Below, piece after piece: positions 8,803 through 51,823 of a stretch of 64,000 nt of DNA. This DNA is from Halichondria panicea. Taxonomy: Eukaryota > Porifera > Demospongiae > Suberitida > Halichondriidae. The position numbers were made by a program, and so were the translations under genes. The notes beneath the pieces are model-generated. The model worked only from the letters and a program-made list of their open reading frames with translations, had not been told where the DNA came from and ran no database searches. The stretch is from contig NC_087378.1 in the NCBI RefSeq assembly GCF_963675165.1, forward strand, positions 7,548,273 to 7,612,272. Direction: 5' to 3'. Numbering within the stretch: the stretch's first letter is position 1; each line of letters starts with the position of its first letter.

Positions 8803-9132
8803 CTTGGATAAGTGATTCTTTGGCACCACGAGGTTGTGTGTGTGCATGCGCATTAGGCGCGGCTACCCTACCCGAGAAATTCCCCATTGACCACACCGCT
8901 CCCATAGATACAATCATACGATCTACACTGCTACTCCCCTCTCTTGTCACATTTGCACCAAGCTGCTAGGTATCTATCAATATCAATATATAGTGAGTGC
9001 CATATGCCATATTCATTGTAAATGTATGCACTTAAGTCACGTACTTAATATAATGACACATTGTTTTGTTGTCACCACACAACCATGTACATTGTTTTCC
9101 CTTCAGAGTCCCCAGCACGGTTAACGACTGTC
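8803..9132. promoter_or_regulatory. Putative divergent promoter, KHDRBS / UGDH
   Basis: A gap of 330 bp lies between opposite starts. A splice-acceptor-like TTTTCCCTTCAG at about 9093-9104 may end a 5'UTR intron of UGDH. No other motif is clear. Confidence 0.35.
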
Positions 9133-10527
9133 ATGCCTGTGAAAAACATATGCTGTATTGGGGCAGGGTATGTTGGTGGACCATCTTGTAGTGTGATTGC
9201 GTACAAATGTCCCGACATTCAAGTCACTGTTGTGGATCTGAGTCAACAACGTATCGATGCCTGGAATTCGAAAAATCTCCCGATTTACGAACCTGGACTT
9301 CTAGACATTGTCAAGGAGGTTCGCGGTCGAAATCTTCACTTCTCTACTGATGTTGAATCGGCGATTCTCAAGTCCGAGCTCATCTTTATATGTGTGAACA
9401 CACCCACTAAGACCTTTGGTCAGGGGAAAGGAAAAGCCCCTGATTTGACGCACATTGAGTCCGCTGCCAGGAAGATTGCTGAAGTTGCTAAAGAGTCAAA
9501 AATCATTGTTGAAAAAAGTACAGTCCCAGTGAAATCTGCCGAGAGTATTGTTAAAATTATGAATCACCTTTGCCCTCAATTTGCAATGAGTGTTCTCTCA
9601 AATCCGGAATTCCTAGCCGAAGGAACAGCTGTGAAAGATCTGTTACATCCCGACCGTGTTCTGATTGGTGGAGATAAATCCGAGGCCGGCCACAGGGCGA
9701 TTGCCGAGCTTAGTGCCGTATATGAACATTGGGTGCCCAAAGAGAAAGTCATTACAATGAATACCTGGTCGAGTGAGCTATCAAAATTGGCTGCCAATGC
9801 GTTCTTAGCCCAGAGGATATCTAGCATCAATGCAATCAGTGCTGTGTGTGAGGCAACTGGAGCTAATGTGGAGGAGGTGGCGAGTGCTGTCGGTCAGGAC
9901 TCTCGAATTGGAAACAAGTTCTTGAAAGCCAGTGTCGGATTTGGAGGCTCGTGTTTTCAAAAGGATGTGCTCAATTTGGTATATCTCTGTGAAGTGCTTC
10001 ATCTTCCCGAAGTGGCTGATTACTGGTACCAAGTCATAGCCATCAACGACTATCAGAGAAAGAGATTTGCCGGGAAAATTGTTGAGCGATTGTTTCAGAC
10101 AGTGAGGGGGAAAAAGATTGTCATTTTGGGGTTCTCGTACAAGAAAAACACAGGTGACACTCGGGAGAGCTCAAGTATTCATATCTGTAAGCATCTGCTT
10201 GAAGAAAACGCTCAAATTGTAATATACGATCCGAAAGTCGAGCATGAGCAGATAAAGACGGATCTCACTGACCCCTCGATTCTACCCGACCCCACGAAAT
10301 TTGAGAAATGTGTGTCGATCGCGAGTGAGCCGTATGCAGCGTTAGAAGGTGCTCATGCACTCGTGGTTTGCACCGAATGGGACGAGTTTGTTTCCCTCGA
10401 CTACCAACGTATCTATGATGGTATGAACAAACCTGCTTTTGTTTTCGATGGAAGGCTGATTTTGGATCATGAGAAACTGGTCAAAATAGGATTTCAAGTT
10501 GAAGCAATAGGGAAAGTAGTAAACTAA
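9133..10527 (+). CDS. UGDH: UDP-glucose 6-dehydrogenase
   Basis: An uninterrupted frame of 464 aa oxidises UDP-glucose to UDP-glucuronate with two NAD+ in the cytosol, feeding glycosaminoglycan and glucuronide synthesis. The Rossmann loop GAGYVGGP is near the N-terminus. [26 protein letters not shown] and the catalytic-cysteine motif [10 protein letters not shown] are all present, as is GDTRESSS in the C-terminal domain. The frame is open further upstream (from 9061), but ATG 9133 ([12 protein letters not shown]) fits the family. It is about 30 residues shorter than human because it lacks the C-terminal tail. No coding introns are present, unlike most neighbours, so it is either an old retrocopy or an intron-loss gene. 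All catalytic motifs are kept, so it should be functional. Confidence 0.97.
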
Positions 10528-10913
10528 GATATTATAAGCTAGTTAATACTTATATTAATCTTTCTATGTACATGTACATTATAGTTATTTAATATAGCTG
10601 ACATAATTATGGTTTAATGAGTTGAGAATGATGGACTTTATAATGATAGACGTATATATATATATACACTTGTAATTACGACTGCAGTTATATAGTATAT
10701 AGTTATACTACATGTATATATAAGTGGAAAATTCATTTTCAATTTGATACAATGTTTTAATGACAATTTGCATGATTGTACGTGTACATGACTTGGTGAC
10801 TACAAATTAAAAAGTAACCGGTGGTTTGGCAGTTTAAATTAAAAATGATGGTGGTTTGGAGGTTTAAAAATGTTCAAGTAATGGTGGTTGTTGAAAATGT
10901 TATGGGTATAGTC
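10528..10913. other. UGDH 3' flank and left edge of the tandem block
   Basis: AT-rich 3' flank. From about 10690 the sequence becomes homologous to that at about 17400 and 23536, marking the left edge of the first repeated block. Confidence 0.6.
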
Positions 10914-11578
10914 TCAGTTGCAGCTGGTGGGATAGAAAAGTTTGAGGCACTCTTGCCTGAAGCCATCGAGATCTTTATCACATAGGCAATCAAACTTTTG
11001 GAATTGCTGCATAGAATAGAGAGGTAGCATGATAAATAATGAGTACATGCACTGAGACGTCTTTACTGCACCCACGCTACTATAGCAATGGTCAAGCTAT
11101 GTAAATAGTTTTGTTGCTCTGTACATTCTTGCAGTGACTCTTATACATACACGCCTCAAATAGAATAGCAAGAACTTACTTTCTCCATAATAAGAACAAG
11201 AAGTGTGTCAAGGTATTCGCTCATAGCTTCATAATCGCCGGAGCTACTGATCAAGTCCCGGTAGAAGACAGCATCGCACATGATTTTAATATTCGCATCT
11301 TCTGCAGAGCAATTTTTCTGCAGAGAGGATAAGAAAATGATCAACGCAGCTACACATTGATTATTATACGTATGTATAATTATGACAATTCAATTTAAAG
11401 AAGAGAGAATTAGATTACTTACCGGCGCAGCATCCTGACATGTAGGTGCATCTGTAGGTATAGGTGTTGACGTAGATGCCTGTCTAGGTGCTCTAGGTAT
11501 AGGTGTTGCTGATGCAAGCAGGTATGCCAGGCCCAAGATGACGGTGACATTGAGGATGAGGATTGTGTTGGAATTCAT
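10914..11578 (-). CDS. Small secreted cysteine-rich protein, copy A
   Basis: Three phase-0 exons (11423..11578, 11180..11317, 10914..11006) encode 128 aa. A hydrophobic signal peptide (NVTVILGLAYLLASA) is followed by a Pro/Thr-rich stretch with two PIP repeats. The helical C-terminal part has seven cysteines in the mature chain, ending CLCDKDLDGFRQEC and FYPTSCN. I do not recognise the family; function is unknown. An extracellular four-helix or saposin-like fold is only a guess. The exon borders and splice sites are conserved in copies B and C. Relative to them this copy has an extra APT before the first cysteine and several substitutions. A TATA-like motif lies about 100 bp upstream. Confidence 0.78.
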
Positions 11579-12501
11579 TTTCTTTTGGTAAGTAGTTTGA
11601 AGGATGAGATTTTGTTTTAGCTGTTGCTGAATTGTTGGCTTGCTGATGAGTTGATGGATTGAGCCTATAACGTCAGTGCTTATATACCAACTCTTAAACC
11701 TCATTAGTATAAGATGATTCATTTTAGCCGTTGAAGTAAATAATCGGCGGACTCTTTCCATTGCATAGCAACAATGAACATTCTAAGAAGCCTGAATGCA
11801 ACAACAGACGGTAGATGGTTCCAGGTTGGCTGGTGAGTAGGTAGAACATGTTACCTGATGTCGTTAACTATGCACGACATGTATAATGGGGAAAATATGC
11901 ATTTTACATTTACACATTGTATGCAGTAGAGGTCCAGCCCCTACACCAAGGTAAGCATAGCAAGCATTTCATTTCCACATGGTGAAAGGTAGCTATATAG
12001 GGATGTACTATAATTACTCATTTCCTAAACATTACCCATAACAATAACTTCCACTGGATGTTGAATGAAAATAAACAATGCATGTCACAACATTAACATG
12101 CAACGAGCCCCGTAGCGCTAGCGATCGATTAAAGATGTAAATCTTAACGAATTAGGAATTATCGTCTGAGTGGGTAGAAATAATGATTATGTCATGTGTA
12201 AACACATTTTGTTGGTATTATTACAGGGGTACGTTTAATATTGAAAACTTGGTATACCGAAAACTTACTTACTTGAAAGAGGCTAGCTAGTTGTCTGTAC
12301 TGCACGGCTGTTCGCGAGACTACTGCACAGTGCAGTATACATCTTCATCATGTCATATTGATATCAGTCCGGTAAATCTACGGTTTTTTCTAGTTTAGCA
12401 GTGCAGTCTGGGTAAAGGTTGCAGCAGAATGATTTGCATTATAGAGTGAGGCACATGGTCCACAGAAGTCTCCCAGCACAGTACAGGAGGACTGATCAAC
12501 C
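11579..12501. other. Divergent spacer between copy A secreted gene and MRPL13
   Basis: Holds the TATA-like promoter of the secreted gene and, at about 12062-12417, a roughly 350-bp insertion absent from copies B and C. No gene is seen in it. Confidence 0.5.
11670..11686 (-). promoter_or_regulatory. TATA-like box with TGACGT motif, copy A secreted gene
   Basis: On the minus strand TATATAAG is followed by TGACGT about 100 bp upstream of the start codon. The same pair is conserved at 18370..18386 and 24505..24521 in copies B and C. The role is inferred. Confidence 0.45.
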
Positions 12502-13365
12502 ATGGCTAGCAAGTTGAGCCAGGTAGTTTACTACACTCTTAATACTCAGTCTAATAGGCCTGATTGGATTATGGTGACCTCTTTGTTCTTGCCTCCTCCT
12601 ATATTTATCAGAGCATTGCTACCCATACCCGGTTGTGGTACTTGATAGACGCTCGTGGGCAAGTAGTCGGGAGGTTGGGCTCAATGGTCTCTCTACTATT
12701 GCAAGGCAAAACGAAGCCGATCTACCACCCAGCAGGTATTCATGTGAAAGCATGCTATCGAGCGCTGAGATTGTGTTTTGCTCCCCACAGTTGACATGGG
12801 TGATAATGTGGTTATTATCAATACAAGAGACATTGTGTACACTGGAAACAAGTGGAAAGATAAACTCTTCAGGCACCACACAGGGTAAGAAATCATACTT
12901 ATTGACTTTATGTCGTTGACTTATCTACTGCCTCCAATCTTACACACACACACACACACACGCACACGCACACCTCCCTAATAAGTAGTAAGGTGTGTAT
13001 GTTAGCCGATTTTTTCCTCTAGCTATCCAGGTGGGCTAAAAGAAGTGGCAGCTTGGAGGTTGCATGAGAAGGACGCAACACAAGCACTCAGGAAAGCAGT
13101 CAATGGAATGCTGCCAAAAAACAATCTTCGCAAAAAAAGAATGAGACGGCTACATCTTTTTCCTGACAGTGTAAGCATGTCAGGACTCTAGAATGTACAG
13201 TAAACACTCAACCACTGATTGTTTCCATTATTACAGGACCATCCATATGCCCTGAACATTTACAAGGTATTAGAAGGACCGTCAGCAGTTTACAAGAAAC
13301 TGGATGAATATACAAAGGATGAAGTTCAGAACTTTCCCGAAATTGTTCGAGTTCCCCATTTATGA
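12502..13365 (+). CDS. MRPL13: Mitochondrial ribosomal protein uL13m (MRPL13), the intact copy
   Basis: Five exons (12502..12522, 12612..12735, 12791..12884, 13023..13170, 13237..13365) give 171 aa, a little shorter than human (178). It is a protein of the large mitochondrial ribosomal subunit. Matches include [69 protein letters not shown] and [15 protein letters not shown]. The reading frame is intact through all exons, in contrast with the copies at 19348 and 24918, so this is the functional gene of the triplicated block. A CA microsatellite sits in intron 3. Confidence 0.92.
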
Positions 13366-13506
13366 TTCATCTACACTTATATGTATGTTAATTATTATGT
13401 ATGTATTATGTATGTTAAATTTATGTACCGTAACCGCGTTTATGATGTTAAGTTCATGTACCATTCTGTATTGGTATTATATGTATGATGCAATGACTCT
13501 AATTTG

Positions 13507-14540
13507 TCACTCCTCATTGTTCTGGACTACTGTCTGCATGTCCTCAAGTATGTTGATTAGTTTGAGACGCTCAGCAGTGAGTTGCTCAATGTGTTGCTTG
13601 TCCTTGTCCTGCTTTGCTCTTAAAGCCTCCATTGAGTCCTTATATTCAGCCTCAAATAAGGCCCTGCATGTAAAGGGTAAATAGGTAACTTTTTTAATTA
13701 ATATACAGGTTCTCACATTGTTGAGGTCCACGTTTTCTCTGTCACTCCTCCAAGTGCCTCTAGTACCGAGGGTTTATTGTGCTCAATGGTTGCTTCTTCA
13801 AGCTGCGTAGAGAGCTTGTCCAATTGTAGTTTGTTGGTAGCAACCAAGGCAGTGTGTTCATCCATCTCTCGCTCGTATTGAGCTAGTTGTAGATCTATAG
13901 CGTCATCACTCTGTATCAAATTTATAAGAGTAAGATTACATAATGAATTTCGTTTACTTGAGTTTGCCATGTTGTCCGGAACATTTCTGTTAGTGTTGTC
14001 ATTTGACTTTCGTATGTGTCCCTGTAGTAATTGAATCATTGTATTGAGTTTATTGAGATCCATATTTCCACTCACATGTGATTTTGTCATTCTTCATTTT
14101 CTGTGCAATTTGTGAATTGAGCTGAGCAATTTCGTCTCTTCTTTCACAGTTCAGCTGTTTAAACCTATGGTATGGTAAGTATACGACTGTAATCAGCATA
14201 TATAGATATGAAGTACAATCGAATCATGTATAAAACTAATTAACAAAAATGTAGTATACATTTTTTACATTTTTGCTTGTGCCTGAGTTTGGGCAACTTT
14301 GAGCTCAGCCACTTGAAGTGTCTCCTTCATTTTGTTTTGTTTCTCTGACGTTGCAATTAGCTTTCCATTAGTTACGCTTCAATTTGCTTTCGTTTAGCGT
14401 ACTCTCCAGCCAGCACTCGTTCATTCTGGGCCTTTGCTGGGGGTAATATAATCAATGGTCAGTGTTTAAGAGTGTTTGCTACCTTTCTGTAATTCCCTCA
14501 AACTGCTCAGAATCACATCCACTTGGAAACCACCTTCCAT
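13507..14540 (-). pseudogene. Coiled-coil gene, broken copy A
   Basis: All five exon regions of the intact gene at 25955..26995 can be found. Compared with it, the second exon lacks 10 bp (junction near 14374), which shifts the frame to an immediate stop. The third exon also lacks one A in a run near 14100. Splice sites are largely preserved. Residual open parts include the acidic heptad-rich segment ending TAERLKLINILEDMQTVV. Confidence 0.8.
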
Positions 14541-14697
14541 CTTCTTTGCACAGTCTCTAAGTTACTTCTCACAAGACGCATGTCCGTTCTCTCCTTCTCC
14601 ACGTGGTTCTTTCTAACCCAAGCAAGAAAACGGTTGTGTTAGGTTCACCGCTGTTCATAAGCTTTGAATACGTCGGCCTAACTTTTATAACAGCAAA

Positions 14698-15230
14698 ATG
14701 GTAAGTTAGAGGGTCGCTGATTATCCTGCTTGCTCCTTTTTTGTTAAAAATTGACTCTAGGGCCCGTAGTTAAAGTTTGGTGTGTGTCTATTGAAAAATC
14801 CTATCTACAATTCAGTTTTTATATCACCCTCATATAGTCAAGGAAGGAGTACAGGAATAGTCTCAGGTCCACAAGATCAGGATCACTCTCACCAGCCGAA
14901 ACGTCAAAAGTCTTGAGAAAGGTTCGTAGTTAGCTGGACTAGACTGTTTGTTTAGCGTTGAGAGAGAGAATAAAATTATGTAATAAAGCTATCCATACGC
15001 TACTATACTGTTAGTGTAGTACGTTCAAAGACTGGTTCATTTGTTAGTGTGTGACAACCTCATTCGTCGGGCCAAGGACTCTGACCTCAAAGTGAAGGCC
15101 TAATGTCCTGAAGATCACCACCAGGAAGACCCCCTGTGGTGAGGGCTCCAAGACTTGGGACAGGTTCGAGATGAAAATCTACAAGCGTGTCATTGATTTG
15201 CACAGTGCTGCCGAGACTGTGAAGCAAATC
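14698..15230 (+). pseudogene. RPS20 (uS10) pseudogene, copy A
   Basis: The exons of cytosolic ribosomal protein uS10 are recognisable ([36 protein letters not shown]). A deletion at the start of exon 2 (near 14839) shifts the frame. A second deletion removes the coding for the GPVRMPTK segment and creates a stop near 15100. The last exon ([16 protein letters not shown]) is missing because the block ends before it. Not functional. Confidence 0.87.
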
Positions 15231-15344
15231 GTATCCTGAAATATTTATTTTAAGTATTAGTAGAAGTCTTAAGTATTGTTATCCCTTGTACTATTCTGTA
15301 CAGAAACTGTCCACAATTAGGTGGTTTATTTACTCTTTCCTTAG

Positions 15345-16205
15345 TATGGGAGGTGATCACTGCCAAAACTAGTGTTCAAGCTGGCGCTGTGCTAATGCCT
15401 CTCGCCATGTTTTTGCTTTCGCTCAAAAGTATTAGAGTGTTATCTATAATGAATTTTATATTAAAGTTAGCTTATCTATATAAAGTCACTGAGAAGAAAA
15501 GACTTATTTACATGCATCTATTGTTGTTATTTATTGTATTATGTGGCTTACCAGGACCTCAAGAAAGAAGAAAATTGATTCTTCCAGGATCTGTAGTTCA
15601 GTGTATATAATATCTAAGAAGAAAAGACCTGTGTACATGCATATTGTTATCTATATTGTTATATGGTAGTGTTTTGTGGCTTACCAGGCCCTCAAGACAA
15701 AGATGATTCTGCCAGGATAATCTGGATCTGGATCTTGGATATCACACATGGGGAATGAGCACGCATGCGCATTACATCCACAGGAATAATTAAAGGGTGT
15801 GTCCAAAGAGATCAATTTCACAAATGGCTACTGCTAGCTAGCTGTTTTAACAGATATTTTCTGAGTATTGTAGCTAACAAAAAGCTAGCGCTTTAGTGCA
15901 AGGCTAACTCATATGTTGAATAGAAAGTTTGTGCGGACAGATGATGCTATGAAAGATTCTGAAGAGACTGCAACAGCCTTCAATGTGAGTCAAACTAGCC
16001 ATAACTCGAGAAAGAAGCTTTAGTTTGCTAATCCACGAATCAAAATCCAAGAGAACGTGGCTAGAAGCCTATAGAAGCTGTTAGTTTTCGTCGCATTGCA
16101 ACCGTTGAGCAGTTATAGCTGGAATACACACACACACACACAGACAGACAGACACACACACAGTCAGCTTTACCGTATCCCTCGTGCGGCTACGCCTCGA
16201 GGCAT
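15345..16205. repeat. Copy A-only insertion with internal duplication and CA/GA microsatellite
   Basis: About 860 bp has no counterpart in copy B. Inside it, two diverged segments of about 110 bp (15493-15600 and 15612-15730) repeat the pattern GTGGCTTACCAGG-CCTCAAG followed by a TTCCAGGAT-like end. A CA/CAGA microsatellite follows at about 16122-16163, then a CG-rich tail. No convincing gene. Confidence 0.5.
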
Positions 16206-16994
16206 AATTAGCAGTAAAAAAATGATCCAGTTTTTTTACAGAGGTGTGTTTTAAAAAATGATGCTGTTTTTTACAAAGGGTTTTAAAAAAATGGTGCTGT
16301 TTTTTTACAGAGGTGTTTTAAAAAAATGATGCTGTTTTTTTACAGAGGGTTTTATGTTCCTTTTTGCAGAGGTGTAGATCTATTTTGTAGAGAGTTTGTT
16401 GTATTTCAGAGAGCAATGCAGAACCAGAGCAACAGCAGGCATGGCAATGGGCAGACACTAGCTGTACATCATAGATAGTAGAGGAATACCTCAGGCAGCA
16501 GGTAGTTGAAAGCACAAAGCTGCTGCTAAAGGCTTTTGACAGACTCGAGTGCAAGAGCAAGGGGGGTAGGTCAAGCTCAAGTGCCTTGGCGGTGCCATCT
16601 ATGCCTACGTCGTCCTCTAGCTCTACGTCTGCTTCCCAAACCCAAAGTGCCTCAAAGTTGGAGATGAACAAACTCTTTAATTGGAGTAGTGGGAGCAATC
16701 CTGAGGTCGAGGGTGGTCCGCGAGACTATCTTTGTCTTCCATCTCTAGCTCTCTTAGCAAAGCCATGTGGGAGAATGTCCTTCTTTTTTGCCTCCACCAT
16801 GTGCTTAAAAGTGGAGGCAAGAAAGAAGATCTCACTCAGTGGTCACAATTTTTTTTAATTAAAACCTCTGTAAAAAAATAGCACCATTTTTTAAAAATCC
16901 TCTGTAAAAAAAACAGCATCATTTTAAAACAGCACCATTTTTTTTAAATCCTCTGTAAAAAAACAGCATTTGGCCAGGTCGGAATTCCGACCTG
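16205..16994. mobile_element. Foldback-like element closing block A
   Basis: The left arm (about 16210-16365) is an array of ATGCTGTTTTTTTACAGAGG units separated by T/A runs. The right arm (about 16855-16970) is the same unit inverted, so the arms can pair. The interior of about 480 bp contains an open stretch (roughly 16480-16720) that reads like protein (for example KLLLKAFDRLECKSKGG, then Ser/Thr-rich). The element ends at a perfect 20-nt palindrome, CAGGTCGGAATTCCGACCTG (16975-16994). No transposase is seen. Confidence 0.6.
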
Positions 16995-17620
16995 ACCAAT
17001 CAGATCAAGGATTGATTCAAGGATTGATAAAATTAAAGGAAATAAAGAATGACAAAAAGTGTATGCGTTCTCTACAGTAGGACGCATTTATAGCTAGCGC
17101 TAGTAAGCCTAACTGTGGCTACTGTTATAGCCAGTCAAGGAGCTATAGTAAGTTGAGTTGACTGCACTAGTGCCGTGCAATCTTTTTCATGTTGTTTAGC
17201 AACGAGTCAAACAAAAATTCATAGCTGCTAGTCAAGCGTTCGCGGTTGACCTTTTGCATGCGTTGGACGTAATTGAATTCTTCTGGTTTTGACACTGACG
17301 TAATGACAATTAACATTCCATTGTGGAATGACCTCTAGACTAAAGTGGTCAGACTGACTCTCTCCCAGCAGGCTGATTCATGAGACTATATAATAATATT
17401 ATTTATACTATACATGTAAGTGGAAAATTAATAAGCCATTTTCAATTTGTTACAATGTTATAATGACAATTTGCATGATTGTACGTGTACATGACTTGGT
17501 GACTACAAATTAAAAAGTAACCGGTGGTTAATTGGCAGTTTAAATTAAAAATGATGGTGGTTTGGAGGTTTAAAAAATGTTCAAGTAATGGTGGTTTTTG
17601 AAAATGTTATGGGTATAGTC
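16995..17620. other. Spacer between block A and the block B secreted gene
   Basis: No gene is seen. It contains a 22-bp stretch (17371-17392) that recurs at 23506-23527 and in an intron at 42640-42661. The block B homology with the left edge of block A begins at about 17400. Confidence 0.5.
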
Positions 17621-18290
17621 TCAGTTGCAGCTGGTGGGATAGAAACGGTCGAGGCACTCTTGCCTGAAGCCATCGAGATCTTTGCCACATAGGCAATCAA
17701 ACTTCTGGAAGTGCTGTATAGAATAGAGAGGTAGCATGATAAATAATGAGTACATGCACTGAGACGTCTTTACTGCACCAACGATACTATAACAATGCAT
17801 GGTCAAGCTATATGTAAGTTAGTTTTGTTGCTCTGTACATTCTTGCAGTAAAAAATTTGACTCTTATACATACACGCCTCAAATAGAATAGCAAGAACTT
17901 ACTTTCTCCATAATAAGAACAAGAAGTGTGTCGAGGTAGTTGCTCATAGCTTCATAAGCATCGGTGCTATTGATCAAGTCCTGGTAGAAGACAGCATCGC
18001 ACATGATTTTAATATTCGCTTCTTTTGCAGAGCAATTTTTCTGCAGAGAGGATAAGAAAATGATCAACGCTGCTACACATTGATTATTATACGTATGTAT
18101 AATTATGACAATTCAATTTAAAAGAGAAAATTAGATTGCTTACCGGCACATCCTGACATGCATCTGTAGGTATAGGTGTTGACGTAGATGCCTGTCTAGG
18201 TGCTCTAGGTATAGGTGTTGCTGATGCAAGCAGGTATGCCAGGCCCAAGATGACGGTGACATTGAGGATGAGGATTGTGTTGGAATTCAT
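17621..18290 (-). CDS. Small secreted cysteine-rich protein, copy B
   Basis: Exons 18144..18290, 17903..18040 and 17621..17713 encode 125 aa with the same signal peptide as copy A. The mature part has seven cysteines (TDACQDVP, KNCSAKEA, IMCDAVF, DCLCGKDL, RQEC, TSCN). It differs from copy A at about a dozen positions (for example NSTDAYEAM for SSSGDYEAM) and is predicted identical to copy C. Function unknown. All splice sites are intact. Confidence 0.75.
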
Positions 18291-18639
18291 CTTCTTTTGG
18301 TAAGGATGAGATTTTGTTTTGGCTGTTGCTGAATTGTTGGCTTGCTGATGAGTTGATGGATTGAGCCTAACGTCAGTGCTTATATACCAACTCTTAAACC
18401 TCATTATTATATGATGATTCATTCTAGCCGTTGAAGTGAATAATCGGCAGACTCTTTCCATTTGCATAGCAACAATGAACATTCTAAGAAGCCCGAATGC
18501 AACAACAGATGGTAGATGGTTTCAGGTTGGCTGGTGAGTATAGGTGGAACAGTTACTATGCAAAACATGTATAATGGGGCATTTTACATTTACATTGTAT
18601 GCAATAGAGGTACAGCCCCTACACCATGCAAGGTAAGCA

Positions 18640-19360
18640 TTATAGCAAGCAACTTCCACTGGATTTTGTTAATGTATGAATACAATGCATGGTCACAGCA
18701 GAATGATTTGCATTATAGAGTGAGGCACATGGTTCACAGAAGTTTCCCAGCACAGTATAGTACAGGAGGACTGATCAACCATGGCTATATATAGACTCTT
18801 TCCATTTGCATAGCAACAATGAACATGAACTTCCACTGGATGTTGTTAATGTATGAATACAATGCATGGTCACAGCAGAATGATTTGCATTATAGAGTGA
18901 GGCACATGGTCCACAGAAGTTTCCCAGCACAGTATAGTACAGGAGGACTGATCAACCATGCATGGCTATATATAGACTCTTTCCATTTGCATAGCAACAA
19001 TGAACATGAACTTCCACTGGATGTTGTTAATGTATGAATACAATGCATGGTCACAGCAGAATGATTTGCATTATAGAGTGAGGCACATGGTCCACAGAAG
19101 TTTCCCAGCACAGTATAGTACAGGAGGACTGATCAACCATGGCTATATATAGACTCTTTCCATTTGCATAGCAACAATGAACATTCTAAGAAGCCCGAAT
19201 GCAACAACAGATGGTAGATGGTTCCAGGTTGGCTGTTAATGTATGAATACAATGCATGGTCACAGCAGAATGATTTGCATTATAGAGTGAGGCACATGGT
19301 CCACAGAAGTTTCCCAGCACAGTATAGTACAGGAGGACTGATCAACCATGGCTATATATA
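18640..19360. repeat. 179-bp tandem repeats around the MRPL13 5' end in block B
   Basis: Three to four direct copies begin at about 18651, 18829 and 19009, with a partial one at about 19234. Each carries AACTTCCACTGGAT..., the MRPL13 5' flank and its ATGGCTATAT start region. Block C has a single copy, so this is a recent local amplification in block B. Confidence 0.85.
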
Positions 19361-20220
19361 GCAAGTTGAGCCAGGTAGGTTACTACACTATTAATACTCA
19401 GTCTAATAGGCCTGATTGGATTAGGGTGACCTCTTTGCTCTTGCCTCCTCCTATATTTATCAGAGCATTGCTACCCATACCGGTTGTGGTACTTGATAGA
19501 CGCTCGTGGGCAAGTAGTCGGGAGGTTGGGCTCAATGGTCTCTCTACTATTGCAAGGCAAAACGAAGCCGATCTACCACCCAGCAGGTATTCATGTGAAA
19601 GCATGCTATCGAGCGCTGAGATTGTGTTTTGCTCCCCACAGTTGACATGGGTGATAATGTGGTTATTATCGATACAAGAGACATTGTGTACACTGGAAAC
19701 AAGTGGAAAGATAAACTCTTCAGGCACCACACAGGGTAAGAAATCATACTTATTGACTTTATGTCGTTGACTTATCTACTACCTCCAATCTTCCACACAC
19801 ACACACACACATGCACGCACACACACGCACACATGCACACACACACACACGCACAACGCACACAGGTACGTACACCTCCCTAATAAGTAGTAAGGTGTGT
19901 GTGTTAGTCGATTTTTTCCTCTAGCTATCCAGGTGGGCTAAAAGAAGTGGCAGCTTGGAGGTTGCATGAGAAGGACGCAACATGCAAGCACTCAAGAAAG
20001 CAGTCAATGGAATGCTGCCAAAAACAATCTTCGCAAAAAAAGAATGAGACAGCTACATCTTTTTCCTGACAGTGTAAGCACTCTAGAATGTACAGTAAAC
20101 ACTCACCCACTGATTGTTTCCATTATTACAGGACCGTCAGCAGTTTACAAGAAACTGGATGAATATACAAAGGATGAAGTTCAGAACTTTCCTGAAATTG
20201 TTCGAGTTCCCCATTTATGA
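19348..20220 (+). pseudogene. MRPL13 pseudogene, copy B
   Basis: Exon structure is preserved, but exon 2 lacks one C (near 19480), giving a rapid stop. Exon 4 has a 2-bp insertion (near 19982) and a 1-bp loss in an A run (near 20024). Exon 5 has lost the part encoding HPYALNIYK. The 5' end differs from the intact copy by an insertion after ATGGCTA. Not able to make uL13m. Confidence 0.87.
19793..19866. repeat. CA-type microsatellite
   Basis: Interrupted (CA)n tract in intron 3 of the MRPL13 pseudogene. The corresponding tract is at about 25363-25436 in block C, and a shorter one is at 12943-12972 in block A. Confidence 0.9.
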
Positions 20221-20354
20221 TTCATCTACACTTATATGTATGTTAATTATTATGTATGTATTATGTATGTTAATTGTTGTTAAATTCATGTACCGTAACC
20301 GCGTTTATGATGTTAAGTTCATGTGGTATTGTATGATGCAATGACTCTAATTTG

Positions 20355-21389
20355 TCACTCCTCATTGTTCTGGACAACTGTCTGCATGTCCTCAAGTATG
20401 TTGATTAGTTTGAGACGCTCAGCAGTGAGTTGCTCAATGTGTTGCTTGTCCTTGTCCTGCTTTGCTCTTAAAGCCTCCATTGAGTCCTTATATTCAGCAT
20501 CAAATAAGGCCCTGTATGTAAAGGGTAAATAGGTAACTTTTTTAATTAATATACAGGTTCTCACATTGTTGAGGTCCACGTTTTCTCTGTCACTCCTCCA
20601 AGTGCCTCTAGTATCGTGGGTTTATTGTGCTCAATGGTTGCTTCTTCAAGCTGCGTAGAGAGCTTGTCCAATTGTAGTTTGTTGGTAGCAACCAAGGCAG
20701 TGTGTTCATCCATCTCTCGCTCGTATTGAGCTAGTTGTAGATCTATAGCGTCATCACTCTGTATCAAATTTATAAGAGTAAGATTACATAATGAATTTCG
20801 TTTACTTGAGTTTGCCATGTTGTCCGGAACATTTCTGTTAGTGTTGTCATTTGACTTTCGTATGTGTCCCTATAGTAATTGAATCATTGTATTGAGTTTA
20901 TTGAGATCCATATTTCCACTCACATGTGATTTTGTCATTCTTCATTTTTCTGTGCAATTTGTGAATTGAGCTGAGCAATTTTGTCTCTTCTTTCACAGTT
21001 CAGCTGTTCAAACCTATGGTATGGTAAGTACGACTGTAATCAGCATATATAGATATGAAGTACAATCGAATCATGTATTTAAAACTAATTAACAAAAATG
21101 TAGTATACATTTTTTACATTTTTGCTTGTGCCTGAGTTTGGGCAACTTTGAGCTCAGCCACTTGAAGTGTCTCCTTCATTTTGTTTTGTTTCTCTGACGT
21201 TGCAATTAGCTTTCCATTAGTTACGCTTCAATTTGCTTTCGTTTAGCGTACTCTCCAGCCAGCACTCGTTCATTCTGGGCCTTTGCTGGGGGTAATATAA
21301 TCAATGGTCAGTGTTTAAGAGTGTTTGCTACCTTTCTGTAATTCCCTCAAACTGCTCAGAATCACATCCACTTGGAAACCACCTTCCAT
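20355..21389 (-). pseudogene. Coiled-coil gene, broken copy B
   Basis: Five exon regions align with the intact copy C, but the same 10-bp deletion as in copy A interrupts the second exon (near 21223). The last two exons remain open, which indicates fairly recent loss. Copy B keeps the A run in exon 3 that copy A lost. Confidence 0.8.
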
Positions 21390-21546
21390 CTTCTTTGCAC
21401 AGTCTCTAAGTTACTTCTCACAAGACGCATGTCCGTTCTCTCCTTCTCCACGTGGTTCTTTCTAACCCAAGCAAGAAAACGGTTGTGTTAGGTTCACCGC
21501 TGTTCATAAGCTTTGAATACGTCGGCCTAACTTTTATAACAGCAAA

Positions 21547-22067
21547 ATGGTAAGTTAGAGGGTCGCTGATTATCCTGCTTGCTCCTTTTTCGTTAAAAAT
21601 TGACTCTAGGGCCCGTAGTTAAAGTTTGGTATCTACAATTCAGTTTTTATATCACCCTCATATAGTCGTACAAGAAGGAAGGAGTACAGGAAGAGTCTCA
21701 GGTCCACAAGATCAGGATCACTCTCACCAGCCGAAACGTCAAAAGTCTTGAGAAAGGTTCGTAGTTAGCTGGACTAGACTGTTTGTTTACCGTTGAGAGA
21801 GAGAGAATAAAATTATGTAATAAAGCTGTCCATACGCTACTATACTGTTAGTGTAGTACGTTCAAAGACTGGTTCATTTGTTAGTGTGTGGCGACCTCAT
21901 TCGTCGGGCCAAGGACTCTGACCTCAAAGTGAAGGCCTAAGGTCCTGAAGATCACCACCAGGAAGACCCCCTGTGGTGAGGGCTCCAAGACTTAGGACAG
22001 GTTCGAGATGAAAATCTACAAGCGTGTCATTGATTTGCACAGTGCTGCCGAGACTGTGAAGCAAATC
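21547..22067 (+). pseudogene. RPS20 (uS10) pseudogene, copy B
   Basis: Exons 1 and 2 match the functional gene, including [10 protein letters not shown]. Exon 3 has the same deletion of the GPVRMPTK region as copy A, giving a stop. A further TGG-to-TAG change hits the KTWDRF motif (near 21992). The last exon is absent. Not functional. Confidence 0.88.
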
Positions 22068-22204
22068 GTATCCTGAAATATTTATTTTAAGTATTAGTAG
22101 AAGTCTTAAGTATTGTTATCCCTTGTACTATTCTGTACAGAAACTGTCCACAATTAGGTGGTTTATTTACTCTTTCCTTAGTATGGGAGGTGATCACCGC
22201 CAAA

Positions 22205-23123
22205 ATTAGCAGTAAAAAAATGATGCTGTTTTTTTTATAGAGGTGTGTTTTAAAAAATGATGCTGTTTTTTACAAAGGGTTTCAAAAAAATTGTGCTGTT
22301 TTAAAATGATGCTGTTTTTTTTACAGAGGGTTTTAAAAAAAATTAATGGTGCTGTTTTTTTACAGAGGTGTGTTTTAAAAAATGATGCTGTTTTTTTACA
22401 GAAGATTTTATGTTCCTTTTTGCAGAGGTGTAGATCTATTTTGTAGAGAGTTTGTTGTATTTCAGAGAGCAATGCAGAACCAGAGCAACAGCAGGCATGG
22501 CAATGGGCAGACACTGTACATCATAGATAGTAGAGGAATACCTCAGGCAGCAGGTAGTTGAAAGCACAAAGCTGCTGCTAAAGGCTTTTGACAGACTCGA
22601 GTGCAAGAGCAAGGGGGAGGGTAGGTCAAGCTCAAGTTCCTTGGCGGTGCCATCTATGCCTACGTCGTCGACTAGCTCTAGCTCTACGTCTGCTTCCCAA
22701 ACCCAAAGTGCCTCAAAGTTGGAGATGAACAAACTCTTTAATTGGAGTAGTGGGAGCAATCCTGAGGTCGAGGGTGTCTTTGTCTTCCATCTCTAGTTCT
22801 CTTAGCAAAACCATGTGGGAGAATGTCCTTCTTTTTTGCCTCCACCATGTGCTTAAAAGTGGAGGCAAGAAAGAAGATCTCACTCAGTGCCATGTACAGT
22901 GTCACAATTTTTTTTAATTAAAACCTCTGTAAAAAAACAGCACCATTTTTTTAAAACTCTCTGTAAAAAAACAGCATCATTTTTTAAAACACACCTCAGT
23001 AAAAAAACAGCACCATTTTTTAAAAACCCTCTGTAAAAAAACAGCATCATTTTAAAACAGCACCATTTTTTTTAAATCCTCTGTAAAAAAAACAGCATCT
23101 GGCCAGGTCGGAATTCCGACCTG
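22205..23123. mobile_element. Foldback-like element closing block B
   Basis: This is the same element as at 16205-16994, with longer arms: left about 22207-22415, right about 22915-23098. Both are made of inverted ATGCTGTTTTTTTACAGAGG-like units. The same protein-like interior is present (about 22530-22790). It ends at the same 20-nt palindrome (23104-23123). Here it directly follows the truncated RPS20 region. Confidence 0.6.
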
Positions 23124-23755
23124 ACCAATTAGATCAAGGATTGATTCAAGGATTGATAAAATTAAAGGAAATAAAGAATGACAAAAAGTGTATGCGTAAC
23201 CGTTCTCTACAGTAGGACGCATTTATAGCTAGTGCTAGTCAGCCTAACTGTGGCTACTGTTATAGCCAGTCAAGGAGCTATAGTAAGTTGAGTTGACTGC
23301 ACTAGTGCCGTGCAATCTTTTTCATGTTGTTTAGCAACGAGTCAAGCAAAAATTCATAGCTGCTAGTCAAGCGTTCGCGGTTGACCTTTTGCATGCGTTG
23401 GACGTAATTGAATTCTTCTGGTTTTGACACTGACGTAATGACAATTAACATTCCATTGTGGAATGACCTCTAGACTAAAGTAGTCAGACTGACTCTCTCC
23501 CAGCAGGCTGATTCATGAGACTATATAATAATATTATTTATACTATACATGTAAGTGGAAAATTAATAAGCCATTTTCAATTTGTTACAATGTTATAATG
23601 ACAATTTGCATGATTGTACGTGTACATGACTTGGTGACTACAAATTAAAAAGTAACCGGTGGTTAATTGGCAGTTTAAATTAAAAATGATGGTGGTTTGG
23701 AGGTTTAAAAAATGTTCAAGTAATGGTGGTTTTTGAAAATGTTATGGGTATAGTC

Positions 23756-24425
23756 TCAGTTGCAGCTGGTGGGATAGAAACGGTCGAGGCACTCTTGCCT
23801 GAAGCCATCGAGATCTTTGCCACATAGGCAATCAAACTTCTGGAAGTGCTGTATAGAATAGAGAGGTAGCATGATAAATAATGAGTACATGCACTGAGAC
23901 GTCTTTACTGCACCAACGATACTATAACAATGCATGGTCAAGCTATATGTAAGTTAGTTTTGTTGCTCTGTACATTCTTGCAGTAAAAAATTTGACTCTT
24001 ATACATACACGCCTCAAATAGAATAGCAAGAACTTACTTTCTCCATAATAAGAACAAGAAGTGTGTCGAGGTAGTTGCTCATAGCTTCATAAGCGTCGGT
24101 GCTATTGATCAAGTCCTGGTAGAAGACAGCATCGCACATGATTTTAATATTCGCTTCTTTTGCAGAGCAATTTTTCTGCAGAGAGGATAAGAAAATGATC
24201 AACGCTGCTACACATTGATTATTATACGTATGTATAATTATGACAATTCAATTTAAAAGAAAAAATTAGATTGCTTACCGGCACATCCTGACATGCATCT
24301 GTAGGTATAGGTGTTGACGTAGATGCCTGTCTAGGTGCTCTAGGTATAGGTGTTGCTGATGCAAGCAGGTATGCCAGGCCCAAGATGACGGTGACATTGA
24401 GGATGAGGATTGTGTTGGAATTCAT
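23756..24425 (-). CDS. Small secreted cysteine-rich protein, copy C
   Basis: Exons 24279..24425, 24038..24175 and 23756..23848 encode 125 aa, predicted identical to copy B; I noted only a silent change in exon 2. Signal peptide, PIP-rich linker and seven-cysteine helical part as in copy B. The TATA-like promoter is conserved at 24505..24521. Function unknown. Confidence 0.75.
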
Positions 24426-24917
24426 CTTCTTTTGGTAAGGATGAGATTTTGTTTTGGCTGTTGCTGAATTGTTGGCTTGCTGATGAGTTGATGGATTGAG
24501 CCTAACGTCAGTGCTTATATACCAACTCTTAAACCTCATTATTATATGATGATTCATTCTAGTCGTTGAAGTGAATAATCGGCAGACTCTTTCCATTTGC
24601 ATAGCAACAATGAACATTCTAAGAAGCCTGAATGCAACAACAGATGGTAGATGGTTCCAGGTTGGCTGGTGAGTATAGGTGGAACAGTTACTATGCAAGA
24701 CATGTATAATGGGGCATTTTACATTTACATTGTATGCAATAGAGGTACAGCCCCTATACACCATGCAAGGTAAGCATTATAGCAAGCAACTTCCACTGGA
24801 TGTTGTTAATGTATGAATACAATGCATGGTCACAGCAGAATGATTTGCATTATAGAGTGAGGCACATGGTCCACAGAAGTCTCCCAGCACAGTATAGTAC
24901 AGGAGGACTGATCAACC

Positions 24918-25820
24918 ATGGCTATATATAGCAAGTTGAGCCAGGTAGGTTACTACACTATTAATACTCAGTCTAATAGGCCTGATTGGATTAGGGTGAC
25001 CTCTTTGCTCTTGCCTCCTCCTATATTTATCAGAGCATTGCTACCCATACCGGTTGTGGTACTTGATAGACGCTCATGGGCAAGTAGTCGGGAGGTTGGG
25101 CTCAATGGTCTCTCTACTATTGCAAGGCAAAACAAAGCCGATCTACCACCCAGCAGGTATTCATGTGAAAGCATGCTATCGAGCGCTGAGATTGTGTTTT
25201 GCTCCCCACAGTTGACATGGGTGATAATGTGGTTATTATCGATACAAGAGACATTGTGTACACTGGAAACAAGTGGAAAGATAAACTCTTCAGGCACCAC
25301 ACAGGGTAAGAAATCATACTTATTGACTTTATGTCGTTGACTTATCTACTACCTCCAATCTTCCACACACACACACACACATGCACGCACACACACGCAC
25401 ACATGCACACACACACACACGCACAACGCACACAGGTACGTACACCTCCCTAATAAGTAGTAAGGTGTGTGTGTTAGTCGATTTTTTCCTCTAGCTATCC
25501 AGGTGGGCTAAAAGAAGTGGCAGCTTGGAGGTTGCATGAGAAGGACGCAACATGCAAGCACTCAAGAAAGCAGTCAATGGAATGCTGCCAAAAACAATCT
25601 TCGCAAAAAAAGAATGAGACAGCTACATCTTTTTCCTGACAGTGTAAGCACTCTAGAATGTACAGTAAACACTCACCCACTGATTGTTTCCATTATTACA
25701 GGACCATCCATATGCCCTGAACATTTACAAGGACCGTCAGCAGTTTACAAGAAACTGGATGAATATACAAAGGATGAAGTTCAGAACTTTCCTGAAATTG
25801 TTCGAGTTCCCCATTTATGA
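24918..25820 (+). pseudogene. MRPL13 pseudogene, copy C
   Basis: It shares with copy B the single-base loss in exon 2 (near 25050) and both exon 4 frameshifts. In exon 5 it retains HPYALNIYK coding but lacks 10 bp just after it (near 25732). The shared lesions show that B and C descend from an already broken copy. Confidence 0.87.
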
Positions 25821-25954
25821 TTCATCTACACTTATATGTATGTTAATTATTATGTATGTATTATGTATGTTAATTGTTGTTAAATTCATGTACCGTAACC
25901 GCGTTTATGATGTTAAGTTCATGTGGTATTGTATGATGCAATGACTCTAATTTG

Positions 25955-26995
25955 TCACTCCTCATTGTTCTGGACTACTGTCTGCATGTCCTCAAGTATG
26001 TTGATTAGTTTGAGACGCTCAGCAGTGAGTTGCTCAATGTGTTGCTTGTCCTTGTCCTGCTTTGCTCTTAAAGCCTCCATTGAGTCCTTATATTCAGCAT
26101 CAAATAAGGCCCTGTATGTAAAGGGATAAATAGGTAACTTATATACAGGTTCTCACATTATTGAGGTCCACGTTTTCTCTGTCACTCCTCCAAGTGCCTC
26201 TAGTGCCGTGGGTTTATTGTGCTCAATGGTTGCTTCTTCAAGCTGCGTAGAGAGCTTGTCCAATTGTAGTTTGTTGGTAGCAACCAAGGCAGTATGTTCA
26301 TCCATCTCTCGCTCGTATTGAGCTTGTTGTAGATCTATAGCGTCATCACTCTGTATCAAATTTATAAGAGTAAGATTACATAATGAATTTCGTTTACTTG
26401 AGTTTGCCATGTTGTCCGGAACATTTCTGTTAGTGTTGTCATTTGAGTTTCGTATGTGTCCCTGTAGTAATTGAATCATTGTATTGAGTTTATTGAGATC
26501 CATATTTACACTCACATGTGATTTTGTCGTTCTTCATTTTTCTGTGCAATTTGTGAATTGAGCTGAGCAATTTTGTCTCTTCTTTCACAGTTCAGCTGTT
26601 CAAACCTATGGTATGGTAAGTACGACTGTAATCAGCATAATTATATAGATATGAAGTACAATCAAATCATGTATTTAAAACTAATTAACAAAAATGTAGT
26701 ATACATTTTTTACATTTTTGCTTGTGCCTGAGTTTGGGCAACTTTGAGCTCAGCCACTTGAAGTGTCTCCTTCATCTTGTTTTGTTTCTCTGACGTTGCG
26801 ATTAGCTTTCCATTAGTTACTTCCAATTGAGCTTCAATTTGCTTTCGTTTAGCGTACTCTCCAGCCAGCACTCGTTCATTCTGGGCCTTTGCTGGGGGTA
26901 ATATAATCAATGGTCAATGTTTAAGAGTGTTTGCTACCTTTCTGTAATTCCCTCAAACTGCTCAGAATCACATCCACTTGGAAACCACCTTCCAT
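25955..26995 (-). CDS. Coiled-coil protein of unknown function, intact copy
   Basis: Five exons in phase (26938..26995, 26714..26891, 26516..26605, 26157..26348, 25955..26111) encode 224 aa. The start MEGGFQVDVILSSLREL is followed by nearly continuous charged heptads, for example KRKQIEAQLEVTNGKL, NQ/E-rich KIAQLNSQIAQKNEERQ, and HIEQLTAERLKLINILE. No catalytic motif or membrane segment is seen. A weak resemblance to synaptonemal complex central element proteins (SYCE1) was considered but is not established. The start lies 175 bp from that of RPS20 on the other strand. Copies A and B are frameshifted, so this is the only working one. Confidence 0.72.
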
Positions 26996-27170
26996 CTTCT
27001 TTGCACAGTCCAGTGCACAGTCTCTAAGTTACTTCTCACAAGATCTACTGCGCATGTCCGTTCTCTCCTTCTCCACGTGGTTCTTTCTACCAAGCCAAGA
27101 AAACGGTTGTGTTAGGTTCACCGCTGTTCATAAGCTTTGAATACGTCGGCCTAACTTTTATAACAGCAAA

Positions 27171-27972
27171 ATGGTAAGTTAGAGGGTAGCTGATTATCCT
27201 GCTCTCTCCTTTTTCGTTAAAAATTGACTCTAGGGGCCATAGTTAAAGTTTGGTGTGTGTCTATTGAAAAATCCTATCTACAGTTCAGTTTTATATCACC
27301 CTTATATAGTCGTACAAGAAGGAAGGAGTACAGGAAGAGTCTCAGGTCCACAAGATCAGGATCACTCTCACCAGCCGAAACGTCAAAAGTCTTGAGAAAG
27401 GTTCGTAGTTAGCTGGACTAGACTGTTTAGTTTAGCGTTGAGAGAGAGAATAAAATTATGTAATAAAGCTATCCATACGCTACTATACTGTTAGTGTAGT
27501 ACGTTCAAAGACTGGTTCATTTGTTAGTGTGTGGCGACCTCATTCGTCGGGCCAAGGACTCTGAGCTCAAAGTGAAGGGCCCTGTGCGTATGCCCACTAA
27601 GGTCCTTAAGATCACCACCAGGAAGACCCCCTGTGGTGAGGGCTCCAAGACTTGGGACAGGTTCGAGATGAAAATCTACAAGCGTGTCATTGATTTGCAC
27701 AGTGCTGCCGAGACTGTGAAGCAAATCGTATCCTGAAATATAGTATTAGTAGAAGTCTTAAGTATTGTTATCCCTTGTACTATTCTGTACAGAAACTGTC
27801 CACAATTAGGTGGTTTATTTACTCTTCCTTAGTGACTATCAAGGTCTATTATATAGGCTGTGTGTACTGTCAAGAGTACTTTGTACACTGTGTAGTTTCC
27901 TTGACCATAGGTTAGACATCCATCAGCATTGAGCCCGGTGTTGAAGTGGAGGTGACCATTGCAGACGCCTGA
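27171..27972 (+). CDS. RPS20: 40S ribosomal protein uS10 (RPS20), the intact copy
   Basis: Four exons: 27171..27173 (only the ATG), 27310..27400, 27528..27727 and 27916..27972, giving 116 aa (human 119). It is a small-subunit ribosomal protein in the cytosol. Matches include [48 protein letters not shown] and the end [16 protein letters not shown]. Reading past the third exon gives an early stop (VS*). The donor GTATCC after KQI and acceptor GTTAG before TSIS restore the family sequence exactly. This is the only complete RPS20 of the three, because the other blocks end before exon 4. Confidence 0.95.
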
Positions 27973-33844: not shown

Positions 33845-34194
33845 CTTGCACTAACTAATTACTATAATAACATGTAGAGATATTTTTGCACTTTCCATTA
33901 TGTTTTTTTGATCATACATTATACCTTTAATTATTTAATTTGTGTCTGTGTGTGTGGATGCATGCTGTTTTTATACCACCAGCCCTTGAGGTCTTTGTCA
34001 ATCATAATAACTATGCTGTATGGTTGTTTCTCTAGAGATTGAAGATCAATCTCTGGTTTCTCTAGGAGCTCTGCAAAGCCTGGGTCACATGATGTTTGGG
34101 GGAGGGGCTGATACGGCCTTTCTCAGGCTTCCTGCAAAGTTGCACAGCACACAGTAAATATCTATGAGTACTTCAAGAAACCGTGTAACTCGTC
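33845..34194. other. Intergenic region, kinase / receptor
   Basis: About 350 bp AT-rich 3' flank followed by the putative promoter of the receptor at 34195. No recognised motif. Confidence 0.4.
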
Positions 34195-51363: not shown

Positions 51364-51823
51364 TCTAGTCAGCTACACTGTACTGCTTTTAGCTATTTTG
51401 CTTAGATCGAAGGTTAGCCTTGTCTGCATTTAACGAGCCCCTCCCACTTAATATTTCTGTGAGGATAACTCCACCTACAGGAAACACAGTATTGGGCAAT
51501 AATCGTATAACTAGTCGCATATGGGATTGCAAGAGTGCACGTGATGTTCGGTAATGATATTCATTATGCTAAACAAGTCAACAGACAGAGCTAGAGAGTG
51601 AGCTTGCTGCACTTTCTCTCAAAGATCCAGGAAGCAAGCAAGCAAGAGCTTTACTTGAGAGCAGGGAGAGATAGTTAGCAGCTTATCTGTGTCTGGTCAC
51701 TTGGGTAAGTGTTATTATGTTGTAGCCAGTTTGTTGAGGGCTTGTTGTTTCAAGAACAAGACTTGTACATGTACCTGGCTGGCTAGCTCTAAATTTTTTT
51801 CTTCTCCACTCTAGGCAGCTGAA
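51364..51823. promoter_or_regulatory. Divergent spacer, receptor 2 / ABHD10
   Basis: 460 bp between opposite starts. A splice-acceptor-like CCACTCTAG near 51806-51814 suggests a 5'UTR intron in ABHD10 (donor candidate GTAAGT near 51704). No other motif is supported. Confidence 0.4.

What the first reader, a model, noticed from the sequence alone, without database searches (positions are those of the whole stretch)
10690..27972. Triplicated four-gene block with complementary gene loss
Three direct blocks carry the same four genes. MRPL13 is open only in the first block. RPS20 and the coiled-coil gene are intact only in the third. The short secreted gene is open in all three. Each essential gene thus survives once, at opposite ends of the array, and any unequal exchange between outer blocks would delete one of them. 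This may lock the array in place. It also suggests that only the secreted gene is kept in multiple copies.
Basis: partly seen in the sequence, partly recalled or inferred. Interest (0 to 1): 0.78.

Follow-up and report, generated by a model that had tools for sequence, protein, structure and literature searches.

The report
Tandem gene triplication with hybrid middle
A stretch of four animal genes was duplicated, each copy lost different genes, and an unequal exchange then made a third, mixed copy in the middle; it is a clear example of a known process, and the surviving genes do not lock the array in place as first proposed.

Summary
Three direct blocks (A 10689-15368, B 17387-22205, C 23522-27972) carry the same four genes. 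MRPL13 is intact only in A; RPS20 and a coiled-coil gene (SYCE1-like, tentative) only in C; the small secreted gene is open in all three. Scans of the 131-Mb assembly found no other intact MRPL13 or RPS20.

The interpretation mostly fails. Block B is a hybrid: left of about A:13667/13677 it matches C (0.42% differences), right of it A (0.79%), while A and C differ by 2.96% and 1.95%; 0 of 5000 permutations reached the max-chi-square value. So a two-copy array with reciprocal loss became three by unequal exchange between A and C. The reciprocal product would hold every intact gene in one block. Deletion by exchange keeps all three conserved genes at 20% (AxC), 50% (AxB) and 77% (BxC) of break positions: no lock. 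RPS20 in A and B lacks its last exon because the duplication ended in the last intron.

Selection for several secreted-gene copies is only weakly supported. A known kind; an assembly error over B cannot be excluded without reads.

The parts
10689..15368 (+). Block A (left copy)
17387..22205 (+). Block B (middle copy, hybrid: C-like left, A-like right)
23522..27972 (+). Block C (right copy; homology to A and B ends at about 27833, RPS20 runs on to 27972)
12502..13365 (+). MRPL13, intact, 5 exons, 171 aa (block A)
   Evidence: Ribosomal_L13 162.4 bits; mammalian uL13m in the PDB, E 3.8e-50
19348..20220 (+). MRPL13 pseudogene (block B)
24918..25820 (+). MRPL13 pseudogene (block C)
13507..14540 (-). 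SYCE1-like pseudogene (block A): 10-bp loss shared with B, further 1-bp loss
20355..21389 (-). SYCE1-like pseudogene (block B): the same 10-bp loss
25955..26995 (-). SYCE1-like coiled-coil gene, intact, 6 exons, 246 aa (block C)
   Evidence: Pfam SYCE1 27.9 bits, cut-off 27
14698..15230 (+). RPS20 pseudogene (block A): 7-bp and 17-bp losses, a stop, no last exon
21547..22067 (+). RPS20 pseudogene (block B): 17-bp loss, no last exon
27171..27972 (+). RPS20, intact, 4 exons, 116 aa (block C); start codon 175 bp from that of the SYCE1-like gene, head to head
   Evidence: Ribosomal_S10 102.5 bits; 40S S20 in the PDB, E 3.2e-56
10914..11578 (-). Secreted gene, block A, 3 exons, 128 aa
17621..18290 (-). 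Secreted gene, block B, 125 aa, same protein as C
23756..24425 (-). Secreted gene, block C, 125 aa
20515..20525 (.). Switch point in B from C-like to A-like sequence (A 13667/13677; allowing for changes private to A, anywhere from about A 13466 on)
15369..16207 (.). Multi-copy 839-bp element in spacer 1, absent at the matching site of spacer 2 (22205/22206)
16208..17386 (.). Rest of spacer 1: fold-back repeat and a repeat of about 420 bp, both multi-copy
22206..23521 (.). Spacer 2: the same two repeats
18603..19350 (.). Repeat of about 181 bp, four copies in B against one in C

Best explanation
A segment running from downstream of a UDP-glucose dehydrogenase gene into the last intron of RPS20 was duplicated in tandem, giving A and C; the new left copy of RPS20 lacked its last exon from the start, so RPS20 could only survive in C (shown from structure; the order of events is inferred). 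One copy of each redundant gene then decayed: MRPL13 in C; the SYCE1-like gene and the RPS20 remnant in A. Later an unequal exchange between C on one chromatid and A on another, at about A 13466-13677, inserted a third, hybrid block B that holds C's left half (dead MRPL13) and A's right half (dead SYCE1-like and RPS20). After that the blocks collected private changes and spacer 1 received a mobile element. B keeps only the secreted gene open. Nothing in the arrangement locks the array.
For: Mosaic pattern: left of the switch 67 substitutions and 27 indels set A against B=C while 4 and 0 set C against A=B; right of it 24 and 11 set C against A=B while 8 and 4 set A against B=C; max-chi-square 80.0, reached by 0 of 5000 permutations of 145 characters. 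Lesions follow the same split: B shares the MRPL13 lesions of C and the 10-bp SYCE1-like and 17-bp RPS20 losses of A. The longest A-C identical tract, 169 bp at 13482-13651, lies within the switch interval. The last RPS20 exon lies only after C, and a fragment of it was not found in either spacer (exact-word check). Both spacers hold the same two repeats. No Ns in the window.
Against: No outgroup, so the single-block ancestor is inferred. Divergence of the stretches that should have the same age is not quite even: B-C left 0.42%, A-B right 0.79%, spacers 2.3% as first aligned (26 of 1123), and outside the fold-back arms 3 of 383 and 6 of about 417. A-C itself differs between halves (2.96 against 1.95%). 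Without reads the middle block could be an assembly product.
Confidence: 0.8

Rival explanations
1. Block B is an assembly artefact: two haplotypes, each with A and C only, were joined inside a block, so that B is C-left of one haplotype and A-right of the other.
For: It predicts the same mosaic; the B-C and A-B differences of 0.4-0.8% could be allelic; the element in spacer 1 and its absence in spacer 2 could be one heterozygous insertion.
Against: No Ns in the window and no second copy of the blocks elsewhere in the assembly in the searches made. B carries its own changes: 11 private substitutions and 5 private indels and extra 181-bp repeats. None of this is decisive.
Confidence: 0.13
2. 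B arose as a plain third copy and was made a mosaic by gene conversion from a neighbour.
For: Conversion between tandem copies is common (general knowledge); the slightly larger spacer divergence would fit an older third copy with later homogenised halves.
Against: One switch point is enough, and similarity runs without a second clear switch from spacer to switch and from switch to the RPS20 junction. Conversion needs an extra event.
Confidence: 0.1
3. One reading: complementary survivors hold the array in place because exchange would delete an essential gene.
For: Some exchanges do delete one: 80% of AxC, 50% of AxB and 23% of BxC break positions.
Against: The rest are harmless, and AxC breaks at 13265-14096 rebuild a complete single block; the tighter mirror arrangement is not what is present. 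The array itself records one exchange.
Confidence: 0.03
4. The array is kept because extra, diverging copies of the secreted gene are favoured.
For: Open in all copies with intact splice sites; its two coding indels are both multiples of 3, against 10 of 45 elsewhere in the blocks; 18 neutral substitutions would leave it open in 51.5% of 20,000 simulations; first exon 1 of 147 changed, later exons 17 of 231, Fisher P 0.002; 15 amino-acid-changing against 3-4 silent changes.
Against: dN/dS of 1.1-1.5 fits relaxed constraint; later exons against introns give P 0.12; B and C encode the same protein; no expression data. It does not compete with the history above.
Confidence: 0.2

Closest known systems
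Triplicated alpha-globin alleles of the anti-3.7 kind (recalled; only listings seen)
   Same: Unequal exchange in a two-copy array gives a triplication with a hybrid in the middle and, reciprocally, a single hybrid copy.
   Different: Here the unit holds four different genes with reciprocal losses, so the reciprocal single block would be complete and the middle block has lost all three conserved genes. The reciprocal product has not been seen.
Tandem duplication and random loss (DRL model of mitochondrial gene order; start of abstract of PMC5745709 seen in a listing)
   Same: A run of genes is duplicated in tandem and one copy of each duplicated gene decays, leaving pseudogenes.
   Different: Nuclear rather than mitochondrial; the survivors keep the same relative order as within a block; the fate of RPS20 was fixed by the duplication end; a third copy was added by exchange.
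MRPL13 (uL13m) and RPS20 (uS10)
   Same: Ordinary family members over full length.
   Different: Nothing unusual in the intact copies.
SYCE1, synaptonemal complex central element protein 1
   Same: Collinear Pfam match, residues 6-131 to profile 6-131, just over the cut-off.
   Different: Not matched in the PDB search and not found by the exon-by-exon genome scan with PF15233; homology tentative.

Membership tests
Triplication by unequal exchange | Three direct copies in tandem | tested here: met
Triplication by unequal exchange | Middle copy switches once, from right-copy-like to left-copy-like | tested here: met
   max-chi-square 80.0, 0 of 5000 permutations
Triplication by unequal exchange | Equal age of B-C left, A-B right and spacer pairs | tested here: inconclusive
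   0.42%, 0.79%, about 0.8-1.4% outside fold-back arms
Triplication by unequal exchange | Reciprocal single-hybrid haplotype in the population | not testable with these tools
   one assembly only
Tandem duplication and random loss | Duplicated multi-gene run with one surviving copy per gene | tested here: met
   3 of 4 genes; the fourth is open in all copies
Tandem duplication and random loss | Changed gene order as outcome | tested here: not met
   Survivors MRPL13, SYCE1-like, RPS20 stand in the order they have within a block; ancestral order itself not seen
MRPL13 (uL13m) | Full-length Ribosomal_L13 domain, closest to mitochondrial uL13m | tested here: met
   162.4 bits; best PDB matches are mitochondrial L13
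RPS20 (uS10) | Full-length Ribosomal_S10 domain, closest to cytosolic eukaryotic uS10 | tested here: met
   102.5 bits; best PDB matches are 40S S20
SYCE1 (PF15233) | Score above the Pfam cut-off | tested here: met
   27.9 against 27; 0 of 9 controls, one reversed and eight heptad-preserving shuffles, match SYCE1
SYCE1 (PF15233) | Match specific rather than general coiled-coil likeness | tested here: inconclusive
   A repetitive coiled-coil frame on C3 scores 27.2 with the same model and the array exons are not among its matches; PDB search gives chorismate synthase and Spindly, not SYCE1
SYCE1 (PF15233) | Place in the synaptonemal complex | not testable with these tools
   needs an experiment

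The most novel reading that the evidence does not exclude
The order of survivors makes the array an accordion: because the good left gene stands in the leftmost block and the good right genes in the rightmost, blocks can be added freely and a fraction of deletions is harmless, so copy number of the diverging secreted gene can vary in the population, down to a rebuilt complete single block, at limited cost to the ribosomal and meiotic genes beside it.
Probability: 0.2. Interest if true: 0.55.

Novelty: new member of a known kind. Interest (0 to 1): 0.35.

Why it matters
It is an unusually readable case: duplication end, reciprocal loss of three genes, and the exchange that made a third block can be put in order from one sequence. 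It corrects the idea that complementary survivors always lock an array: what counts is the order of survivors along the blocks. It predicts haplotypes with one, two and three blocks. If the SYCE1-like gene is real SYCE1 and the animal is not bilaterian, it would also bear on the published view, cited in PMC4132317 (passages seen), that SYCE1 appears in Bilateria.

Tried and rejected
Rejected: the lock. Considered and dropped: a stop in exon 2 of RPS20 in all blocks, a misreading of the alignment on my part; the spliced translation shows it in A only. Considered: other ribosomal copies elsewhere; the C15 and C16 matches read as MRPS10 and RPL13A by my own reading of the translations, with no database match made for them. 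Led nowhere: tRNA scan (0 found) and Rfam scan (0 matches) of the window; naming the organism. The window reads like a sponge to me (compact genes, repeats, beta-helix-like frames; recall and judgement), but two literature searches for an assembly of this size gave no matching record among the rows shown, and looking for mitochondrial DNA to test it failed. Structure prediction was not used, since spliced proteins may not count as letter-for-letter products of the window. Left out of counts: the stretch A 11951-12421 and everything beyond 15335, and 16 characters private to B in the max-chi-square test; the stretch 11967-12421. Lesion positions were entered by hand, and the exchange model takes all break positions as equally likely.
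Full report
Setting. The window lies at C2:7548273-7612272 of an unnamed 131.5-Mb assembly in 39 contigs and holds no N. It is animal DNA: MRPL13 and RPS20 are closest in the PDB listing to mammalian or other animal proteins at the top. I judge it sponge-like, which was not confirmed.

The blocks. A self-comparison gives 10689-11966 and 12422-15372 (A), 17387-18651 and 19263-22209 (B), and 23522-24788 and 24833-27833 (C) as the matching pieces, aligned base by base. Each has, left to right, the secreted gene (minus strand), MRPL13 (plus), the coiled-coil gene (minus) and RPS20 (plus). In C the two last start codons, at 26995 and 27171, face away from each other with 175 bp between.

Which copies are good. 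MRPL13 reads through only in A; B and C share a 1-bp loss in exon 2, a 2-bp gain and a 1-bp loss in exon 4 and a loss in exon 5 (10 bp in C, 40 bp in B). RPS20 reads through only in C, with its last exon at 27916-27972; A and B share a 17-bp loss, and the last exon is missing after both. The coiled-coil gene reads through only in C; A and B share a 10-bp loss. A alone has a 1-bp loss in the coiled-coil gene and a 7-bp loss and a stop in RPS20. The secreted gene reads through in all three. Assembly-wide scans show no other MRPL13, RPS20, coiled-coil or secreted copy, apart from the C16 and C15 relatives noted above and two C14 matches below cut-off.

The middle block is a hybrid. Of 161 variable characters in the compared stretch, 145 group B with C or with A. 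Left of the switch 94 set A apart and 4 set C apart; right of it 35 set C apart and 12 set A apart. The best switch lies between A 13667 and 13677, chi-square 80.0, and 0 of 5000 shuffles reach it. Since the A-private rate in the right half is 8 in 1617 sites, the two last left-type sites (13651, 13667) could be private to A, so the exchange may lie anywhere from about 13466 on; the longest identical A-C tract, 169 bp at 13482-13651, is there. Differences: left A-C 71 of 2399, B-C 10 of 2367; right A-C 32 of 1638, A-B 13 of 1636. Lesions follow the same split, so reciprocal loss came before the exchange.

Ends and spacers. A and B run together into the spacer to 15368/22205, while C leaves them at about 27833 and goes on to the true last exon of RPS20. 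Both spacers hold a fold-back repeat and a repeat of about 420 bp, both found at many other places (79 matches, 40 of 146 candidates scored). Spacer 1 alone has an 839-bp element, nearly identical to copies elsewhere (47 matches, 40 of 3198 candidates scored; best other copy 100% over 851 query bases as rounded); spacer 2 has the empty site. Spacer divergence is 26 of 1123 as first aligned; in a second alignment the fold-back arms account for much of it, with 3 of 383 and 6 of about 417 outside them.

Why there is no lock. An exchange that deletes joins the left part of one block to the right part of a later one. With the lesions as mapped, all three conserved genes survive at 832 of 4159 break positions for AxC, 2100 for AxB and 3199 for BxC. 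If the survivors were swapped end for end, the figures would be 0, 0 and 1452. So the order present is the permissive one. The event that made B had a reciprocal product, A-left with C-right, that would be a complete single block.

The secreted gene. A against C: 15 amino-acid-changing and 3 silent changes (B: 15 and 4), pN 0.052, pS 0.035-0.046, introns 0.036-0.040; B against C one silent change. Exon 1, with the signal peptide by my reading, has 1 change in 147 sites, exons 2-3 17 in 231 (Fisher P 0.002); exons 2-3 against introns P 0.12. A neutral copy would stay open through 18 substitutions in 51.5% of 20,000 simulations, and 10 of 45 other indels in the blocks are multiples of 3 while both in this gene are. 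Selection to keep it is suggested, not shown. It has no Pfam match above a cut-off.

The coiled-coil gene. Pfam gives SYCE1 at 27.9 bits, cut-off 27, collinear over residues 6-131, and 0 of 9 controls match it. Against: an unrelated repetitive coiled-coil frame on C3 scores 27.2 and the array exons were not found by the same model; PDB and NCBIfam searches give no SYCE1. A literature search for SYCE1 with sponge and synaptonemal complex listed 4 papers, and SYCE1 with Porifera 1; passages of PMC4132317 report the view of Fraune et al. that SYCE1 appears in Bilateria.

Verdict. Real, well resolved, and of a known kind: tandem duplication with reciprocal loss, enlarged by unequal exchange. The main doubt is assembly of the middle block.

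Noticed in passing
25955-26995: Candidate SYCE1 homologue in an animal that may be a sponge; the published view seen in passages of PMC4132317 is that SYCE1 appears in Bilateria. Homology and organism both tentative.
   Followed up: partly
15369-16207: Multi-copy 839-bp element, nearly identical to copies on other contigs, present in spacer 1 and absent at the matching site in spacer 2: probably a recently active family.
   Followed up: partly
9085-10527: UDP-glucose dehydrogenase in one open frame of 480 codons without introns, while its neighbours have introns.
   Followed up: partly
34189-35569 and 49979-51372: Two sets of frames with repeats like Chlam_PMP (Pfam 27.8 and 23.8 bits for one frame each), presumably beta-helix cell-surface proteins.
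   Followed up: no
18603-19350: Repeat of about 181 bp with four copies in block B and one in C, overlapping the MRPL13 upstream region.
   Followed up: no
16970-18564: 11 of 12 substitutions between B and C (with the 420-bp repeat) are transitions.
   Followed up: no
L017 and L018: The MRPS10-like gene on C15 also has a second, partial copy about 4 kb away (91% identical over about 800 bp) without the upstream exons of the first, another local duplication in this genome.
   Followed up: no
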